Source: Rhodospirillaceae bacterium
Lineage (GTDB): Bacteria; Pseudomonadota; Alphaproteobacteria; CACIAM-22H2
Direction: 5' to 3'
NCBI GenBank assembly: GCA_022843945.1
Contig: JALHMR010000001.1
Coordinates: 186,001-250,000, forward strand
DNA length: 64,000 nucleotides
Both the position numbers and the translations under genes were made by a program. Shown in pieces: positions 6,219 to 13,572 of this stretch (position 1 is the first letter of the stretch; each line of letters opens with the position of its first letter). The notes below the pieces were generated by a model. The model was given only the letters and a program-made list of their open reading frames with translations, did not search any database and was not told the DNA's origin.

Positions 6219-7022
6219 TCAGATCACCGTGACGGCGGCGTCGCGGTTGAGAATCGCGCGCACCAGGCTCAGGGCCGCCAGCATCGAGGTCTTGGGATTG
6301 TCCGGCAGCGGCCGCCCGGCGATGCTGATCTCGGTGCGCCCGAAGGCGCCTTCGGCCTCGATGCGATGGATGTTGCCGGGCGCGTCAGGGTCGGCGACCA
6401 TTTTCACTTCGGTCTTCTCAAAGCCGACACCAGCCAGCGCGACCGCCGCCGCGACATTGGCGTTCTGCGGATAGTCCCGCGCCGCGGCGCGTGCGTCGCC
6501 GGTGTAAAATGTCGTCGCCTCGGTAAGCGCAGCGAGGTTCACCAATTTTTCGGCTGGTGTGCCCATCCAGGACTTCGGTGGCTTGCGCGAAGTGTAGATC
6601 ACCTTGTCGAGGCCGGCGACGCGGGCGGCGGTCAGAAGATCGAGGCCGCCGACAGCGCCGGCTGGAATCAGCAGCCGGGCGCCATTCGCCAGTGCTGCAT
6701 CCTTCAGGCGCGCGAACCGCGCCTCGTCGGCCAGCGCCCCGACGGACGCCACCAGGAGATCGACCCCGGCCGACAGCACCAGTGTGCCATAGGCGCTCAC
6801 GGCTTCGTGCCCCGCGCATTCGACGACCAGATCCGGGTTGAGCTCGAGCAGATCGTCCACGGTGGGAACGACGGTGACGCCCGCCTCGGGATCCGCCGCC
6901 CGCGCGCGCCCGGGCCGCAGCAGCACGGCGGCGATGGGCCGCGTCGCGGCCGCCAGATGACGAGCGACGGTGCGGCCGATCGCGCCGTAGCCGATCAGGG
7001 CGATCCGCGAAGGCGGCCTCAT
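6219..7022 (-). CDS. nadX: L-aspartate dehydrogenase (NadX-like)
   Basis: NAD(P)-dependent enzyme of 267 aa converting L-aspartate to iminoaspartate or oxaloacetate plus ammonia, which can feed NAD synthesis. The Rossmann motif ALIGYGAIGRTVARHL is at the N-terminus. The C-terminal domain has YTSRKPPKSWMGTPAE and NANVAAAVALAGVG, characteristic of the DUF108/aspartate dehydrogenase family. The ATG at 7022 overlaps the divL stop (ATGA), so it is coupled to divL. No nadA or nadC is nearby, so a biosynthetic versus catabolic role cannot be told. Confidence 0.85.
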   Translation of the reverse strand: MRPPSRIALIGYGAIGRTVARHLAAATRPIAAVLLRPGRARAADPEAGVTVVPTVDDLLELNPDLVVECAGHEAVSAYGTLVLSAGVDLLVASVGALADEARFARLKDAALANGARLLIPAGAVGGLDLLTAARVAGLDKVIYTSRKPPKSWMGTPAEKLVNLAALTEATTFYTGDARAAARDYPQNANVAAAVALAGVGFEKTEVKMVADPDAPGNIHRIEAEGAFGRTEISIAGRPLPDNPKTSMLAALSLVRAILNRDAAVTVI

Positions 7023-9133
7023 TCGCCGGCGGCGTCGGCCGGGCTGGCGATCAGTTGCGGAGGCGTCGCCACGCGGGCCGGCAGCGTGCAGACGACCGTC
7101 GTGCCGCGGCCGGGAGCCGATTCGAGCCAGACCCGGCCGCCATGCAGCTCGAAGATATGCTTGACCAGCGAGAGGCCGAGGCCGGGACCCGTGCGCCGCA
7201 TGCGCCCCACCCCGAACGGCCGGGCCCGGGCAAAGGCCTCGAAGACCCGCGCCTGGTCCTCGGCGGGGATACCGACGCCGGTGTCGGTCACCGTGAGGAT
7301 CGTCATTTCGCCATCGGCGCGCGCCGCCAGCTTGATCGAGCCGCCGGCCGGCGTGAACTTGATGGCGTTGGAGACGAGGTTGCACATCGCCTGCTTGAGG
7401 CGCCGCGCGTCGCCTTCCAGGGTCGCCATCTCGGTCGGGTATTCGACGCTGAGCCGCAGGTCCTGCGAGCGCGCCATGTCCTGCATGACGGCCGCGACCT
7501 CATCCACCAGTGTGCGCGGATCGACCGCGCCGAGCTCGAGCGACATCTTGCCGGCCTCGATCGAGGCAAGGTCGAGCATGTCGTCGATGATCGAGAGCAG
7601 CCGCTCGGAAGAGACGAGGATGCCGCGGCAGTATTCGAGCTGGCGCGGGTTGAGCGAGCCGAAGTAGAGGTTGGCCAGGATCTCGGCGAAACCGATGATC
7701 GTATTGAGCGGCGTGCGCAGCTCGTAGGACACCGAGGAGATGAACTCCGACTTGAGGCGGTCGGCGGCCTCGAGCGCCTCGGCGCGCTCGCGCAAGGCGG
7801 TCTCGACCCGCGACGTATCGGTGACATCGAGATAGGAAAGCAGCACGCCGCCATCGGGCAGCGGCACCGTCGCATAGTCCAGCACCGATCCGTCGGTGCG
7901 CTCGAGCCGGCCGGCGCGCGGCTCGCGCGCGGTCAGCCGCGTGAGCAGCCGCTCCTTGTAGGCCGGCCAGTCGCCGCCGTGATCGAAGAAGCCCTTGGTA
8001 TGCTCGGTGATGCTGGACAGGTGCGGCTCGTCGTTGAGGTCTTCCGGCGTCAGCCGCCACATGCGGGCATAGGCCGGGTTGGTCAGCTTCAGCCTTCCGT
8101 CGCTGCCGATCACCGCGACACCTTCATAGAGGTGGTCCAGCGTTTCACGCTGGACGGCGATCAGGGTGTTGTAGGAGCGCTCCAGCGACAGCCTGTCCGT
8201 GACGTCGTCGTAGGTGAAGAGCAGGCCGCCCATCGGGTGCGGCGCCACGCGGCTGTGCAGCGTCGTGCCGTCGGGGATGTAGACCAGTTCCTCCAGGGGA
8301 TCGAGAAGGGAGGTGAACAGGCGCAGGCGCTGGCGCTTGAAGGCCGGGAAGTCGGCGTATTCCGGCAGGCGCCGCTTTTCCCGTAGCATTTCGAGCAGTT
8401 CGGCGAAGCCCGGCTCGGTGCGCAGCCAGTCCTCATCCAGCTTCCACAGCTGGGTGAAGGCCGTGTTGAAGAACTTGAGACGCTGGTCCTGGCCGTAGAT
8501 GGCGATGGCGGTGGCCAGGTTCTCCAGCACCTCGCCATGCGCGGCGACGTGGCGGGCGAACTCCTTCTGGATCTCCTCGCGCTCGGTGACATCGAGGGCG
8601 ATGCCAACCGAGCCGCCGCTGGGCAGCGGCACCTCGGTGAATTCCAGGCGTCGGCGCGAGCCGGCGATGACGGCGTGCCCCTCCTCGCTTTGCGGGGTCT
8701 GGGCGGCGCGGGCGAGCTCGGCCAGCGCCCGGGCCCGGCTGACCATCGAATGCCCGCCGAGGGTGAGGCCTTCGCGCCGCACCCGCTCGCGGTCGGCCTC
8801 GACCGCCTTGGCGTAGGCGGCGTTGCAGTCGATGATCTCGAGGTTCTCATCGCGCCGCCAGACCGGCAGCGGCAGACGGTCGAGGGCGTGGCCGATGCGG
8901 TCGCGCACCACCGCCAGCCGGGTCAGCTCGGCATCGGCTTCCGCCTGGCGGGCCAGGGCCGAGGCGCGGCTGGCGTGGAACTGCTGCTCGGCCTTGGCCC
9001 CCGCCGCCTGGGCCGTCGCCAGTTCGCTCGCCAGCCGGGCGGCGCGGCCGCGCTCGCGGATCGCCCAGCCCGCCGAGAGCCCGGCCAGGGCCGCCAGACC
9101 CAGCGTTATCGCAACAGTTCCGTCAACGACCAC
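7019..9133 (-). CDS. divL: DivL-type PAS histidine pseudokinase (Tyr in place of the phospho-acceptor His)
   Basis: Sensor kinase-like protein of 704 aa. An N-terminal membrane helix (about 7-24) is followed by a coiled coil, three PAS-like modules (about 80-190, 200-320, 330-440), a dimerisation/H-box domain and a HATPase domain with MCNLVSNAIKF, VTDTGVGIP and GPGLGLSLVKHI. In the H-box the sequence is SSVSYELRTPLNTI: Tyr (TAC) replaces the normally phosphorylated His at about residue 470. That substitution is the hallmark of Caulobacter DivL, which binds DivK and controls the CckA-CtrA cell-cycle pathway. GTG start with GGAG five bases upstream. It sits between tsaE/addB and ahcY, as divL commonly does in this class. 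DivL-like binding partners here are inference. Confidence 0.88.
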   Translation of the reverse strand: MVVDGTVAITLGLAALAGLSAGWAIRERGRAARLASELATAQAAGAKAEQQFHASRASALARQAEADAELTRLAVVRDRIGHALDRLPLPVWRRDENLEIIDCNAAYAKAVEADRERVRREGLTLGGHSMVSRARALAELARAAQTPQSEEGHAVIAGSRRRLEFTEVPLPSGGSVGIALDVTEREEIQKEFARHVAAHGEVLENLATAIAIYGQDQRLKFFNTAFTQLWKLDEDWLRTEPGFAELLEMLREKRRLPEYADFPAFKRQRLRLFTSLLDPLEELVYIPDGTTLHSRVAPHPMGGLLFTYDDVTDRLSLERSYNTLIAVQRETLDHLYEGVAVIGSDGRLKLTNPAYARMWRLTPEDLNDEPHLSSITEHTKGFFDHGGDWPAYKERLLTRLTAREPRAGRLERTDGSVLDYATVPLPDGGVLLSYLDVTDTSRVETALRERAEALEAADRLKSEFISSVSYELRTPLNTIIGFAEILANLYFGSLNPRQLEYCRGILVSSERLLSIIDDMLDLASIEAGKMSLELGAVDPRTLVDEVAAVMQDMARSQDLRLSVEYPTEMATLEGDARRLKQAMCNLVSNAIKFTPAGGSIKLAARADGEMTILTVTDTGVGIPAEDQARVFEAFARARPFGVGRMRRTGPGLGLSLVKHIFELHGGRVWLESAPGRGTTVVCTLPARVATPPQLIASPADAAGE

Positions 9134-9186: not shown

Positions 9187-9215
9187 AACAAGCCGGCCAA
9201 ACGGGCCGGCTTGTT
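9187..9215 (-). terminator. Strong hairpin, probable leftward terminator ahead of divL
   Basis: A perfect 12-bp stem (AACAAGCCGGCC / GGCCGGCTTGTT) with a 5-base loop. On the minus strand it is followed by TGCTTTG. It would insulate divL from transcripts arriving from the island or ahcY. The plus-strand tail GTTTCT is also T-rich, so it could act in both directions. Confidence 0.6.
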
Positions 9216-9375
9216 GTTTCTCAAGGGTTTGCCGGCGTTCGCCCTCTCGAAGAGCCCCTCAATCCACAGAACGTCGTCGAGCGTAACCGGCCGCCACTCA
9301 GCGCTCGGGCGGGAAGCGGTCAAAGCTCTACGAGTTTGAAATGGGCGAGCGTTAACGAATTTCAGCGCTTCCCGA

Positions 9376-9413
9376 CGACTCTTGAGCGTCTCAAGCCCGA
9401 GTCGCGATATAAT
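9376..9413 (+). promoter_or_regulatory. Promoter with overlapping inverted repeat for the first island genes
   Basis: A perfect -10 TATAAT lies at 9408-9413. Immediately upstream, CGACTCTTGAG-CGT-CTCAA-GCCC-GAGTCG (9376-9404) forms an 11-bp stem with one bulge, covering the -35 zone. This is a classic operator position. The first ATG with a consensus ribosome site is about 80 bases downstream. Confidence 0.5.
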
Positions 9414-9495
9414 TTGCGGAGGGCGACTCGAAATTCGTCCCACCCTGGAGAGGCAACAGAATTTGGCCACAAGGCCAGCAACACAGGAGGTCAAC

Positions 9496-9579
9496 ATGCA
9501 GTGGAACGTCGTGCCGAAACGGCCCAATGGAGAATCCCATGACCGCAGGAACCGCGCTGCTGAAATGGTTTGCGGATAA
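9496..9579 (+). CDS. Leader-like micro-ORF, 27 aa (MQWNVVPKRP...)
   Basis: An ATG with an ideal AGGAGGT six bases upstream opens a 27-codon frame (MQWNVVPKRPNGESHDRR and on to MVCG). It is the best ribosome site in this part of the window, which argues for translation. The next gene, in the +1 frame, begins inside it at 9527/9539, so the two could be translationally coupled. Not recognised as a known peptide. The same layout, a well-initiated micro-ORF overlapped in +1 by a small gene, recurs at 10960/10997. Confidence 0.45.
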   Translation: MQWNVVPKRPNGESHDRRNRAAEMVCG

Positions 9580-9811
9580 GATCGAGTCCTTGATCGAGCA
9601 GCTGCGCTCTCTGCTCCGGATCGAGGTCAGGCACACTTCAGAGATCACAGACGAGCGCAAGGGCACGCACAAGCGGACGGAGTTCGCGCTGCGCATCGGC
9701 GACTCCCCGCCCCCGCCGAAGCCCCCGAAAAGGTCGCTCCTGAGAGCGACCCCCAAACTGCTTCCCAAACCGAGGCCGCCCGTCCAGCTCGCTCCGCCCG
9801 AGAACAGCTGA
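9539..9811 (+). CDS. Island small protein A: amphipathic helix plus basic hairpin, unknown function
   Basis: About 90 aa from ATG 9539, which has GGAGA seven bases upstream; an in-frame ATG at 9527 adds four residues. An amphipathic helix (ALLKWFADKIESLIEQLRSL) is followed by a two-strand-like segment RIEVRHTSEITDER then KGTHKRTEFALRI, and a proline-rich basic tail (SPPPPKPPKRSLL). The D-x-R-x-G-x-H spacing and flanking residues match proteins B and C of this island, so I infer one family. No signal peptide or long hydrophobic segment. Function unknown; DNA, RNA or membrane-surface binding would suit its basic, amphipathic character. Confidence 0.55.
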   Translation: MTAGTALLKWFADKIESLIEQLRSLLRIEVRHTSEITDERKGTHKRTEFALRIGDSPPPPKPPKRSLLRATPKLLPKPRPPVQLAPPENS

Positions 9812-10105
9812 CGCATCGCGGCTCTGACAACTCATTGAGCCGAACTGCGCATCTGCCGATGACGGTCGAATGACGATTCCAGCGCCCATTCGCGAAAAAA
9901 AGCGCCGCCAGAATCATGGGGTTAGGGAGACCCCTACCTTGCGACAGCGGTGCTCATAACCAAAAAACCGCGACCGTCCAGTGACCTAACCACCTAACCA
10001 TCACGTTCTGTGCATTGACTGCCCGTTTGACACGATGCGCGACGCAGCCACAATGACTTCGGGGTTCCCGTCGAGTCGTCATCACGACCTAAGCGGGAGT
10101 CCGTC

Positions 10106-10327
10106 TTGTCTACCCTCCTCGAAATCCTCTACGCGATCGGACGCGGCGGCATGGCCGTGATCGACTACGTGGGCGGACTCCTGAGCATCCGGTTCGCCCG
10201 CGACCGGCTGCACTGCCGCATCGACCTCCGGGAGGGCACCATCCACCTCACGTCCACCCGCACCATCTTCGGGTTCGGGGGACCGGGTCCGGACAGGCTC
10301 AAGGGGCCGCCGGATTCCAGCGTCTAG
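10106..10327 (+). CDS. Island small protein B: paralog of A and C, unknown function
   Basis: 73 aa starting at TTG 10106, with GGGAG six bases upstream. The leader GGGAGTCCGTCTTGTC is nearly identical to that of protein C (AGGAGTCTGTCATGTC), which both supports the TTG start and suggests duplication. A mostly hydrophobic N-terminal helix (LLEILYAIGRGGMAVIDYVG) precedes IRFARDRLHCRIDLREGTIH. Read without gaps against protein C this gives 9 matches in 25, including F-x-R, I-D-x-R, G-x-I-H and a later R. The 294 bases between A and B hold a tandem ACCTAACC repeat (near 9985) and small hairpins but no gene. Confidence 0.6.
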   Translation: MSTLLEILYAIGRGGMAVIDYVGGLLSIRFARDRLHCRIDLREGTIHLTSTRTIFGFGGPGPDRLKGPPDSSV

Positions 10328-10342
10328 TTTTTCTTTGAAAGA

Positions 10343-10443
10343 TAGGCAGTGCCTACGATCCCCCATTGACACGACTCTGGGGGGCCTCAGATATTGATTC
10401 CCACGCGTGGTCCAAACACGCGTAAGTCTCCCGACAGAGACTT
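10343..10443 (+). promoter_or_regulatory. Promoter and palindromes controlling island protein C
   Basis: TTGACA (10366-10371), an 18-base spacer and GATATT (10390-10395) make a good housekeeping promoter. It is flanked by three perfect palindromes: TAGGCA-G-TGCCTA (10343-10355) upstream of -35, CCACGCGTGG (10401-10410) around the expected start point, and AAGTCTC-CCGACA-GAGACTT (10424-10443) in the 5' leader. The density of dyads suggests repression or an RNA switch. Confidence 0.55.
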
Positions 10444-10526
10444 CCCGACAAAGAGAACTTCGAAAACCTGTCGAATCAGCGCTTCTGCGCGACAGCGTCG
10501 TTGTTTCTTGATGCCAGGAGTCTGTC

Positions 10527-10841
10527 ATGTCGGAGCCGCGCTCAGGCGCCTCACCCAACCCCATCACAGTCTTCCTAGACTGGCTCTCGCCCGTCATCGA
10601 CAAAGTGCTGTCGCTGGCGCGCTTCCAGTTCGAGCGGCAGAGCTCGCGGGAGACGATCGACCCGCGGACAGGCCTGATCCACCGCCAGGAGGTCAGGCTG
10701 AAGTGGAGCGCCGGTCAGCCTAGTGCAGTTAGGCTCCCCCGCGCTCCTTCCGGAGAAGCTCCTTCGTCGCGGCGATTATCCGCTGGTAGGCCTTCACGCC
10801 GTCGAAGGCTCCCCGGGCCAAAAACTCGTCCGCCCTCATAG
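10527..10841 (+). CDS. Island small protein C: paralog of A and B, with run-on C-terminus
   Basis: ATG at 10527 with AGGAG six bases upstream. Residues 12-35 form an amphipathic helix (PITVFLDWLSPVIDKVLSLA) followed by RFQFERQSSRETIDPRTG and LIHRQEVRLKW. The match to protein B is ungapped and to protein A needs two one-residue gaps. After about residue 60 the frame turns into arginine/proline-rich sequence that is antisense to the minus-strand ORF at 10729-10878, so the natural stop was probably lost and only the first 60 or so residues look ancestral. Function unknown. Confidence 0.55.
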   Translation: MSEPRSGASPNPITVFLDWLSPVIDKVLSLARFQFERQSSRETIDPRTGLIHRQEVRLKWSAGQPSAVRLPRAPSGEAPSSRRLSAGRPSRRRRLPGPKTRPPS

Positions 10842-10878
10842 CGGCCATGAACGGCGCGTCCTGGGTTAACAAACGCAC
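10729..10878 (-). CDS. Small antisense-oriented ORF, 49 aa helical protein, unknown
   Basis: GTG at 10878 opens 49 codons that read like a genuine helical protein: MRADEFLARGAFDGVKAYQR then IIAATKELLRKERGGA. Short amphipathic proteins of this pattern are common in prophages and mobile elements, but I cannot name the family. An internal ATG at 10848 is an alternative start. It overlaps the doubtful C-terminal third of protein C on the opposite strand. No clear ribosome site is seen upstream of the GTG. Confidence 0.45.
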   Translation of the reverse strand: MRLLTQDAPFMAAMRADEFLARGAFDGVKAYQRIIAATKELLRKERGGA

Positions 10879-10959
10879 CCGCGCGCTCGCCCCCAAGTTG
10901 TGCTATTCTGCTCGTCCCACTGGGCCCAGTGGTCGTTAACCGTCAGAACGGAGGCGACC

Positions 10960-11016
10960 ATGAAGTACATGACCATGTGGGACTGGTCGCCCGCCAATGT
11001 CGGGCGGGCAAGTTAG
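10960..11016 (+). CDS. Leader-like micro-ORF, 18 aa (MKYMTMWDWS...)
   Basis: ATG with GGAGG seven bases upstream opens MKYMTMWDWSPANVGRAS and ends at TAG 11014-11016. Its 3' half spans a GC-rich hairpin (GCCCGCC / GGCGGGC, about 10988-11008). The next ORF starts inside that hairpin in the +1 frame. A ribosome on this leader would open the hairpin, so coupling or attenuation is plausible. Equally, one deleted base could have split an ancestral longer gene in two. Confidence 0.45.
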   Translation: MKYMTMWDWSPANVGRAS

Positions 11017-11140
11017 GCGCAACAACAACAGGAGGAAGAAAAAGAAAAAGCCGACCTACGAGTCCTCGACGCAGGAGTTCTGGAACAGGACCATCGATAT
11101 CCTGACCCGGATCGTCCTGGCGATCGTGGAACGCCTGTAA
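10997..11140 (+). CDS. Polybasic/amphipathic micro-protein, 47 aa; probable decayed fourth copy of the island family
   Basis: ATG at 10997 lies in the loop of a GC-rich hairpin and has no ribosome site of its own. The peptide has a strongly basic head (RRNNNRRKKKKK) and a hydrophobic-amphipathic tail (FWNRTIDILTRIVLAIVERL), like the N-terminal helices of proteins A-C. Beyond its TAA (11138) and a TAG twelve bases on, the same frame continues with LRLGTRRKTRGRDGRIDLKE, resembling protein B around RIDLRE. I therefore read it as a broken paralog, although the basic/hydrophobic layout also recalls small membrane-active peptides. Confidence 0.45.
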   Translation: MSGGQVRRNNNRRKKKKKPTYESSTQEFWNRTIDILTRIVLAIVERL

Positions 11141-11145
11141 GGCGA

Positions 11146-11250
11146 ATGGTAGGCGGACAAACCAAACCTGCGGCGGGACCTTCGCCTCGGTACCAGGAGG
11201 AAGACCCGCGGTCGAGACGGCCGGATCGACCTGAAGGAAAGGCCAACTGA
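11146..11250 (+). CDS. Possible micro-ORF, 34 aa
   Basis: ATG five bases after the preceding stop, with AAGGCG just upstream, opens 34 codons (MVGGQTKPAAGPSPRYQEED, then basic residues to KAN). The tight spacing suggests a polycistronic arrangement. Composition is proline/arginine-rich and could be a shadow of the decayed family copy in another frame, so it is uncertain. Confidence 0.25.
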   Translation: MVGGQTKPAAGPSPRYQEEDPRSRRPDRPEGKAN

Positions 11251-11263
11251 GCGCCGCAGACGG

Positions 11264-11470
11264 ATGGCGCCGCGCCCACGCGAGGCGCGCAACAAGAAAT
11301 ATCGCAACATGACGCCCTTCGAGTTCTGCAAGTCGGACTCGGGGCGGTTTTTGGCGGCCGGCAACGGGAACACTCCGCCCGGCAACTACGGTTCGAAAAG
11401 TCCATCTCGCGCTATGTACGAAGACTGGGGCGCGGAGCGAAAAGACCAGTCTGGAAGGCCCCTCGCTTAG
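11264..11470 (+). CDS. Island small protein H, 68 aa, unknown function
   Basis: Last rightward ORF of the island: MAPRPREARNKKYRNMTPFE, then FCKSDSGRFLAAGNGN and a Gly/Asn/Ser-rich stretch ending SGRPLA. Basic N-terminus, no hydrophobic segment. It is in the same frame as the decayed family copy upstream. Its TAG overlaps the TAA of the convergent replication-initiator remnant by two bases (TTAG), and both stops fall inside the loop of the shared hairpin at 11454-11487. No clear ribosome site; ATG 11309 is an alternative start. Not recognised. Confidence 0.4.
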   Translation: MAPRPREARNKKYRNMTPFEFCKSDSGRFLAAGNGNTPPGNYGSKSPSRAMYEDWGAERKDQSGRPLA

Positions 11471-11487
11471 ATGGCAGAGGGGCCTTC
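11454..11487 (+). terminator. Hairpin terminator shared by convergent island genes
   Basis: An 11-bp perfect stem (GAAGGCCCCTC / GAGGGGCCTTC) with a 12-base loop, followed by TCGTTTCT on the plus strand. The stops of the rightward and leftward ORFs both sit in the loop. Confidence 0.65.
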
Positions 11488-12088
11488 TCGTTTCTGGGCC
11501 GAAGCCCGGGCCGCGACATCGAACCGCGAGAACCTCGTCGACGCCGTCGACATGAACCCGTGCAGCTCCCGCAGCCGGTCGACGGACATCCCGTCGACGA
11601 AGGACTTCATCGAGTAGCGGACCAGCCGGGACACCGCCTCGGCGCGTGCCTGCTCGTCCCGAAGCGCCTCACCACCGACTGGTAGGGCAGCGTGTGCCGG
11701 GCCGCCATCACATCCCTGACTTCCTGGACCGAGAGCCACCGGCCCTTCTTGTCCCTCAGGGCCACCACCGCGTGCAGGTGCAGGGTGAAGGGGTCCGGGC
11801 TCGGGAGGTCGATGCGGTGCCCGTGCCTCTCCCGCCACGCCAGAGTGAAGAGGTCCGACCGGGTGCCGTCCTTGACGGCCAGCTCGTAGGAACCCGACGC
11901 CAGGGCACGCAGGCCCAGCCTCCGCAGGTGCTGGGTCAGGCCCTTGGTGAAGGACCTCGCCACTTCGTGAAGGTCTCCGTCCAGCAGGTGACCGGCCTCA
12001 CCAGCAGCGTGACCCGGGCGATGTTCTCCTTCGGAACAGCCGAGAACTTGGAGACAGCGGCCCTGGATCGTTCCAGGCAGGCCGATGT
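11467..12088 (-). pseudogene. Decayed HUH-family rolling-circle replication initiator, 5'-truncated at ahcY
   Basis: Three segments in different frames together read like a Rep protein. The first (from just after the ahcY stop) has SKFSAVPKENIARVTLLVRP, a motif-I-like strand. The second (about 11990-11670) has TKGLTQHLRRLG and the hydrophobic-His-x-His motif TLHLHAVVAL. The third (about 11670-11467) has SRLVRYSMKSFVDGMSVDRL with a YxxK motif. HxH plus YxxK is the HUH endonuclease signature. Frameshifts near 11995 and 11670 break it, and no start codon remains between the first segment and the ahcY stop, so the 5' end seems lost at the junction. Assignment is by eye; plasmid- or phage-type Rep are both possible. 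Confidence 0.5.
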
Positions 12089-13519
12089 TCAGTAGCGGTA
12101 GGTGTCCGCCTTGTAGGGCCCGACCGGTGCCAGGCCGAGATACTCGGCCTGCTTGGGCGAAAGCTTGGTCAGCTTGGCGCCGACCTTGGCGAGATGCAGC
12201 GCCGCCACCTTCTCATCGAGGCGCTTGGGCAGGGTGTAGACCTTCTTCTGGTACTTGCCCTGGTTGGTCCACAGCTCGATCTGGGCCAGCGTCTGGTTGG
12301 TGAACGAGGCGCTCATCACGAAGCTCGGATGGCCCGTGCCGCAGCCCAGGTTCACCAGACGGCCCTCGGCGAGCAGCAGGATGCGCTTGCCGTCCGGGAA
12401 CTCGATCTCGTCGACCTGCGGCTTGACGTTGTGCCACTTGTAGTTCCGCAGTGCCGAGACTTGGATCTCGTTGTCGAAGTGGCCGATGTTGCAGACGATC
12501 GCCCGGTCCTTCATCTTGCGCATGTGGTCCTGGGTGATGACGTCGAGGTTGCCCGTCGCGGTGACGAAGATGTCGGCCTGCGGCGCCGCGTCCTCCATGG
12601 TCACCACCTGGTAGCCTTCCATCGCCGCCTGCAGGGCGCAGATCGGGTCGATCTCGGTGACCATGACGCGCGCCCCGGCGTTGCGCAGGCTCGCCGCCGA
12701 GCCCTTGCCGACATCGCCGAAGCCGGCGACGACCGCGACCTTGCCCGACATCATGACGTCGGTGGCGCGGCGGATGCCGTCGACCAGGCTCTCGCGGCAG
12801 CCGTAGAGGTTGTCGAACTTCGACTTGGTGACCGAGTCGTTGACGTTGTTCGCCGGGAAGAGCAGGCGCCCTTCCTTCTCCATCTGGTAGAGACGGTGGA
12901 CACCGGTGGTGGTCTCTTCCGTCACGCCCTTGATGTTCTTGCCGAGCTGCGAGTACCAGCCCGGCTTCGCCTTCAGCGTCTTCTTGATCGAGGCGAAGAG
13001 GAATTCCTCTTCCTCGCTGCCCGGCTTGGCGATGACCTTGACGTCCTTCTCGGCCTTCATGCCGAGATGAACGAGCAGGGTCGCGTCGCCGCCATCGTCG
13101 AGGATCATGTTCGGCGTGCCGCCATCGGCCCATTCGAAGATGCGGTGCGTGTAGTCCCAGTATTCCTGCAGCGTCTCGCCCTTGTAGGCGAAGACCGGGA
13201 TGCCGGCAGCGGCGATAGCCGCGGCGGCGTGATCCTGCGTCGAGTAGATGTTGCACGAGGCCCAGCGGATGTCGGCGCCGAGATGCTTCAGCGTCTCGAT
13301 CAGCACCGCGGTCTGGATGGTCATGTGCAGCGAGCCGGCGATGCGCGCGCCCTTGAGCGGCTGCTTCTTGCCGTACTCGGCGCGGGTGGCCATCAGGCCG
13401 GGCATCTCGGTCTCGGCGATGTTGAGCTCGCGCCGGCCCCAATCGGCCAGCTTGATGTCGGCCACCTTGTAATCGGTCGTGGGCGATTTTGTGTTCTTTT
13501 TCAAGGTACTGGCGGGCAT
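12089..13519 (-). CDS. ahcY: S-adenosylhomocysteine hydrolase
   Basis: NAD-dependent enzyme of 476 aa that splits S-adenosylhomocysteine into adenosine and homocysteine, relieving product inhibition of methyltransferases. Typical segments are [20 protein letters not shown], the NAD-binding [20 protein letters not shown] and the C-terminal [19 protein letters not shown] at 13519 is chosen because AGGAG lies six bases upstream; the preceding in-frame TTG is less likely. The reductive-methylation load of the window (several methyltransferases) fits but proves nothing. No SAH riboswitch was recognised in the leader. The 3' end is directly abutted by the Rep remnant. Confidence 0.97.
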
Positions 13520-13572
13520 CAAGGGCTCCTGGGAAGCGAAGCGGAGGGATCGAGCGAAGGGGGAAGGTCGGC

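What the first reader, a model, noticed from the sequence alone, without database searches (positions are those of the whole stretch)
9539..11250. Tandem family of small helix-plus-hairpin proteins in a micro-gene island
Proteins A (9539), B (10106) and C (10527) share a layout: an N-terminal amphipathic or hydrophobic helix, then a basic two-strand-like segment. B (IRFARDRLHCRIDLREGTIH) and C (FQFERQSSRETIDPRTGLIH) align ungapped with 9 identities in 25; A matches with two one-residue gaps around D-x-R-x-G-x-H. B and C also share their 5' leaders (GGAGTC-GTC-TGTC). A fourth copy seems decayed across 10997-11230. I know of no named family with this signature, so this is my best candidate for an undescribed system in the window.
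Basis: seen in the sequence. Interest (0 to 1): 0.8.

Follow-up and report, generated by a model that had tools for sequence, protein, structure and literature searches.

The report
Orphan small-protein family in insert
Three neighbouring tiny genes, plus a fourth elsewhere in the same bacterium, really are diverged copies of one small helix-plus-hairpin protein that matches nothing known, but they sit in a strain-specific DNA insert and nothing yet shows what they do.

Summary
The core observation holds. A (9539-9811), B (10106-10327) and C (10527-10841) are paralogues beyond chance (B-C 0/2000 shuffles, A-C p=0.0015, leave-one-out profiles). AlphaFold gives C and X the predicted layout: one amphipathic helix, then a two-strand hairpin. 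B and X also share about 85 nt of promoter and leader, ending in a hairpin that buries the ribosome-binding site. The region is a roughly 2.86-kb insertion between ahcY and its terminator; in 7 of 9 relatives examined ahcY is followed directly by the sensor-kinase gene. No homologue was found in Pfam, PHROGs, NCBIfam, PADLOC, PDB, phage, plasmid or viral-contig sets, or in a sample of several hundred Pseudomonadota genomes including all 22 other family genomes held. The best reading is a lineage-restricted orphan protein family carried as accessory cargo, each gene with its own promoter and at least two with a gated start site. A toxin-like, membrane-surface role is a guess. Membership in type I toxins fails on size and on the helix. 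It is new as a family but ordinary in kind.

The parts
9225..12085 (.). insertion of about 2.86 kb between ahcY (12089-13522, -) and the sensor-kinase gene (7019-9133, -); edges approximate
   Evidence: 7 of 9 family relatives examined have ahcY followed directly by the kinase gene; no DNA match to the insert in 22 family genomes or elsewhere in the own genome beyond chance-level pieces
9539..9811 (+). A: 90-aa protein, weakest family member; in-frame ATG also at 9527
   Evidence: A-C p=0.0015; leave-one-out 3.9 bits, 10/2000
10027..10054 (+). sigma-70-like promoter of B (TTGACA-16-CACAAT), conserved at X
   Evidence: (2 sites found, 0.2 expected)
10062..10102 (+). 5' leader hairpin of B; its 3' arm contains the Shine-Dalgarno GGGAG (10095-10099)
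   Evidence: 28 of 30 pair cells formed in B and X; 33-52% when the partner is slid
10106..10327 (+). B: 73-aa family member, TTG start
10366..10395 (+). sigma-70-like promoter of C (TTGACA-18-GATATT)
   Evidence: shares CCCNNTTGACACGA with the B promoter (D11)
10527..10841 (+). C: 104-aa family member; core 10569-10715, tail overlaps an antisense ORF

Best explanation
A, B, C and the off-window copy X are four old, strongly diverged paralogues of one lineage-restricted small-protein family carried in accessory DNA. B, C and X, and less clearly A, appear to be separate transcription units. B and X are transcribed from a TTGACA promoter whose mRNA begins with a hairpin that pairs the Shine-Dalgarno sequence, so translation should be low until the hairpin opens. 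The protein is an amphipathic helix, suited to lying on a membrane surface or to pairing with another helix, followed by a charged two-strand hairpin that would carry the specific contact. My best guess at function is a tightly controlled, conditionally expressed accessory protein of a mobile or recently mobile insert, acting at the membrane surface in a toxin-like or exclusion-like way. Shown: family membership, the predicted fold, the shared promoter and hairpin of B and X, and the insertion. Inferred: expression, gating, membrane contact and any activity. Confidence: family about 0.95, insertion about 0.9, start-site gating of B and X about 0.5, membrane-acting role about 0.25; the figure given is for the explanation as a whole, function included.
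For: Family. Fold. Amphipathic helices with moment 0.41-0.55 and mean hydrophobicity 0.03-0.42. Promoter and leader shared by B and X, promoters 2 found against 0.2 expected, pairing kept through 4 one-sided changes, Shine-Dalgarno of X less accessible than in all 18 comparison genes and of B less than in 16 of 18. Insertion.
Against: No relative in any other genome, so there is no test of selection between strains. Codon changes between copies are near saturation (C-X dN 0.68, dS 1.33; B-C dN exceeds dS). A and C do not have unusually buried start sites. The window insert also holds a truncated DUF6961-like ORF and a frame-broken minus-strand ORF, which suggests decay. No antisense RNA candidate was identified. 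The AlphaFold models rest on four sequences (pTM 0.26 and 0.32).
Confidence: 0.35

Rival explanations
1. Decaying accessory cargo: the family once had a role in a mobile element, but in this insert the copies are relics drifting without function.
For: A truncated DUF6961-like ORF antisense to the C tail and a minus-strand ORF that changes frame near 11680 lie in the same insert; B-C dN is not below dS; GC at third positions is lower in C and X than in ahcY and the kinase gene.
Against: All four frames are open over the conserved core, the ungapped C-X alignment runs 49 codons, and B and X keep promoter, hairpin and start spacing.
Confidence: 0.33
2. Membrane type I toxin genes with antisense RNA antitoxins, in a tandem array as seen for some known type I loci.
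For: Tandem single-gene units with own promoters, buried Shine-Dalgarno in B and X, and an overlapping upstream ORF at A (9497-9580) that recalls mok of hok/sok.
Against: Membrane type I toxins are generally under 60 aa with a transmembrane helix (PMC8309996). These proteins have 64-104 aa, helices too polar to span a membrane, and a beta hairpin. The promoter scan found no minus-strand site in the insert.
Confidence: 0.12
3. Small adaptor or nucleic-acid-binding proteins of an unrecognised phage satellite or plasmid-derived element, the basic hairpin being the binding part.
For: Basic hairpins; small orphan genes in a clean insertion; X lies about 80 nt upstream of a HEPN-like gene.
Against: No PHROGs, phage, plasmid or viral-contig relative; no integrase or recognisable replication gene in the insert; HEPN-like relatives elsewhere lack X.
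Confidence: 0.15

Closest known systems
Membrane-associated type I toxins (Hok, TisB, Ldr, Ibs, Fst)
   Same: Small proteins, single-gene units, sometimes in tandem, with start sites held shut by leader structure
   Different: Known ones are generally under 60 aa with a transmembrane helix and an antisense RNA (PMC8309996); here 64-104 aa, a surface-type helix, a beta hairpin and no antisense RNA identified
Lineage-restricted orphan small-protein families on genomic islands
   Same: No relatives, small, in a strain-specific insert, lower G+C than the flanks
   Different: Four diverged copies with a shared promoter and leader in two of them
DUF6961-like small alphaproteobacterial proteins (PF22284)
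   Same: Present as a truncated antisense ORF in the same insert
   Different: Unrelated to A, B, C and X

Membership tests
[quoted passage not shown]
   64 (X), 73 (B), 90 (A), 104 (C) aa; criterion from PMC8309996
Membrane-associated type I toxins | hydrophobic transmembrane alpha helix | tested here: not met
   amphipathic helices with mean Eisenberg hydrophobicity 0.03-0.42 and moment 0.41-0.55, charges spread through the helix; no dedicated transmembrane predictor was available
Membrane-associated type I toxins | cis or trans antisense RNA antitoxin | tested here: inconclusive
   no minus-strand sigma-70-like site in the insert; a consensus scan cannot exclude one
Membrane-associated type I toxins | translation of the toxin limited by mRNA structure or antitoxin at the ribosome-binding site | tested here: inconclusive
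   predicted burial of the Shine-Dalgarno in B and X, not in A and C
Membrane-associated type I toxins | toxicity on overexpression | not testable with these tools
   needs an expression test
Any family of Pfam, NCBIfam, PHROGs or PADLOC | score above the curated or usual cut-off | tested here: not met
   for A, B, C and X only chance-level scores far below the cut-offs (best E 0.066)
A-B-C-X family as one family | pairwise or profile similarity beyond composition | tested here: met
   A is the weakest at p about 0.002-0.005
A-B-C-X family as one family | membership of the D region 10997-11230 | tested here: not met

The most novel reading that the evidence does not exclude
An undescribed kind of single-gene module: small helix-plus-hairpin effector proteins, each with its own promoter and a start site locked by a 5'-terminal hairpin, multiplying as diverged paralogues in accessory DNA, with a conflict-related (toxin-like or exclusion) function.
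Probability: 0.12. Interest if true: 0.65.

Novelty: new member of a known kind. Interest (0 to 1): 0.36.

Why it matters
It is a clear, testable case of a small-protein family that no current library holds, found only through its own paralogues. B and X diverge strongly in protein yet keep promoter and start-site hairpin, which makes regulation the first thing to test. If the proteins are active, they would be a new small-effector family; if not, the case shows how orphan gene families decay in island DNA.

Tried and rejected
Fourth copy at 10997-11230: about 0 bits against the profile. Plasmid hits in Novosphingobium and Rhizobium: in frames overlapping long ORFs, no separate small gene. Viral hits to X: an in-frame piece of a phage portal-like protein. 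Viral hit to B: antisense to a glycine-rich phage protein. Weak profile hits in family, class and phylum genomes: partial, mostly inside or antisense to other genes, at E values expected by chance for the number of genomes searched. Leader pattern in genome contigs: one match inside a planctomycete gene. Fold searches in PDB and viral libraries: best E 0.46 and 0.33, not meaningful for so small a fold. Rfam: nothing above threshold. The minus-strand ORF at 11607-11963 was considered as an HUH replication protein because of TLHLHAVVAL; no family, plasmid, phage or genome relative supports this (the one genome hit is antisense to a fabG-like gene). An integron cassette array was considered from two GTTAGGC sites by eye; it was not tested with an attC model and no integrase was seen.

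Full report
What is there. Between a sensor-kinase gene (7019-9133, minus) and ahcY (12089-13522, minus) the window has about 2.9 kb with three plus-strand small ORFs: A 9539-9811, B 10106-10327 (TTG start) and C 10527-10841. G+C over most of it is about 0.60-0.63, lower than the 0.65-0.74 of the kinase gene.

Is the family real. Local alignment against 2000 shuffles gives B-C 61 (no shuffle as high) and A-C 60 (p=0.0015); A-B alone is not significant (p=0.12). Searching the whole genome with C finds a further copy, X, on contig 29 at E=6e-6. C-X scores 96 with no shuffle above 47, and X picks C out of 218 mechanical ORFs of the window at 96 against 42 for the next. Profiles built from three members find the fourth: C 48.2 bits, X 17.3, B 10.4, none matched by 2000 shuffles; A 3.9 bits, matched by 10. 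So B, C and X are secure and A is probable. The D region (10997-11230) is not a member.

Shape. AlphaFold2 on the four-row alignment gives C a helix 12-30 and strands 33-44 and 51-62, with the hairpin near pLDDT 90, and X a helix 2-24 and strands 30-40 and 45-55. pTM is low (0.26 and 0.32), as expected for a short chain with a low-confidence tail and a thin alignment. The helices are amphipathic and look too polar to span a membrane. The proline- and arginine-rich tails of A and C differ, and the C tail lies over an antisense ORF.

Control regions. B and X share about 85 nt upstream: TTGACA, a 16-nt gap, a -10-like hexamer, and a leader GAGTCG-CATCACGAC-TAA-GCGGGAGTC that runs to the start codon. 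The consensus scan finds two promoters in the insert, before B (10027) and C (10366), where 0.2 are expected; their sequences are alike (D11). The leader folds into a hairpin whose 3' arm holds the Shine-Dalgarno. In B and X 28 of 30 pair cells form; sliding the partner leaves 33-52%. All four changes that keep pairing are on one side, so this is consistent with a kept structure but not proof. In X the Shine-Dalgarno is less accessible than in all 18 comparison genes, in B than in 16 of 18; A and C are ordinary.

Setting. In 7 of 9 family relatives whose locus was read, ahcY is followed closely by the kinase gene; one (G017) has an unrelated 2.1-kb insert there and one has no kinase gene nearby. 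In the window a terminator-like hairpin remains beside the kinase gene (9187-9216), like those that follow ahcY in several relatives, so the insert probably lies between the ahcY stop and that terminator (inference). No other part of the insert has a DNA match in the family beyond chance-level pieces. X sits about 80 nt upstream of a HEPN-like gene with relatives in four other class genomes, none with a family member beside it, so no shared partner gene links the two loci.

Distribution. No match in Pfam, PHROGs, NCBIfam or PADLOC, PDB by sequence, phages or plasmids, viral contigs, genome contigs, the 22 other genomes of the family, a class search of 385 genomes or a phylum search of 398; these two overlap and include the own genome. 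Not every copy was run against every collection. The genome and viral-contig scans with single proteins see close relatives only; the profile searches reach further but rest on four sequences. Metagenomes could not be searched.

How it may work. The evidence supports old paralogues, separate promoters, and in two of them a predicted locked start site. The helix suggests surface membrane contact or pairing with another helix. A toxin-like or exclusion role follows only by analogy. Membership in membrane type I toxins was tested and not met on size and helix type (PMC8309996). Decay of former cargo is nearly as likely: the same insert holds a truncated DUF6961-like ORF and a frame-broken ORF, and codon changes are too saturated to show selection.

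Verdict. Observation largely right, one copy wrongly placed and a better one found elsewhere; a new orphan family of an ordinary kind; function open.

Noticed in passing
10729-10896 (-): Small ORF antisense to the C tail, a truncated relative of DUF6961-like alphaproteobacterial proteins.
   Followed up: partly
11467-11963 (-): Minus-strand ORF that seems to change frame near 11680 and ends at a hairpin (11457-11490) shared with ORF 11264-11470; HLH motif looks HUH-like by eye, no relatives found.
   Followed up: partly
L075:557-2659: Relative G017 carries a different insert of about 2.1 kb at the same ahcY-kinase junction, a 700-aa ORF with DctP-like and hydrolase-like parts by eye: the junction may be a repeated insertion site.
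   Followed up: no
L021:4106-4627 (-): HEPN-like ORF (RNFLIHGYWH) about 80 nt downstream of X; relatives in 4 other of 240 class genomes.
   Followed up: partly
9497-9580 and 10960-11016 (+): Two short ORFs with strong Shine-Dalgarno sites (MQWNVVPKRPNGESHDRRNRAAEMVCG, overlapping the start of A, and MKYMTMWDWSPANVGRAS).
   Followed up: no
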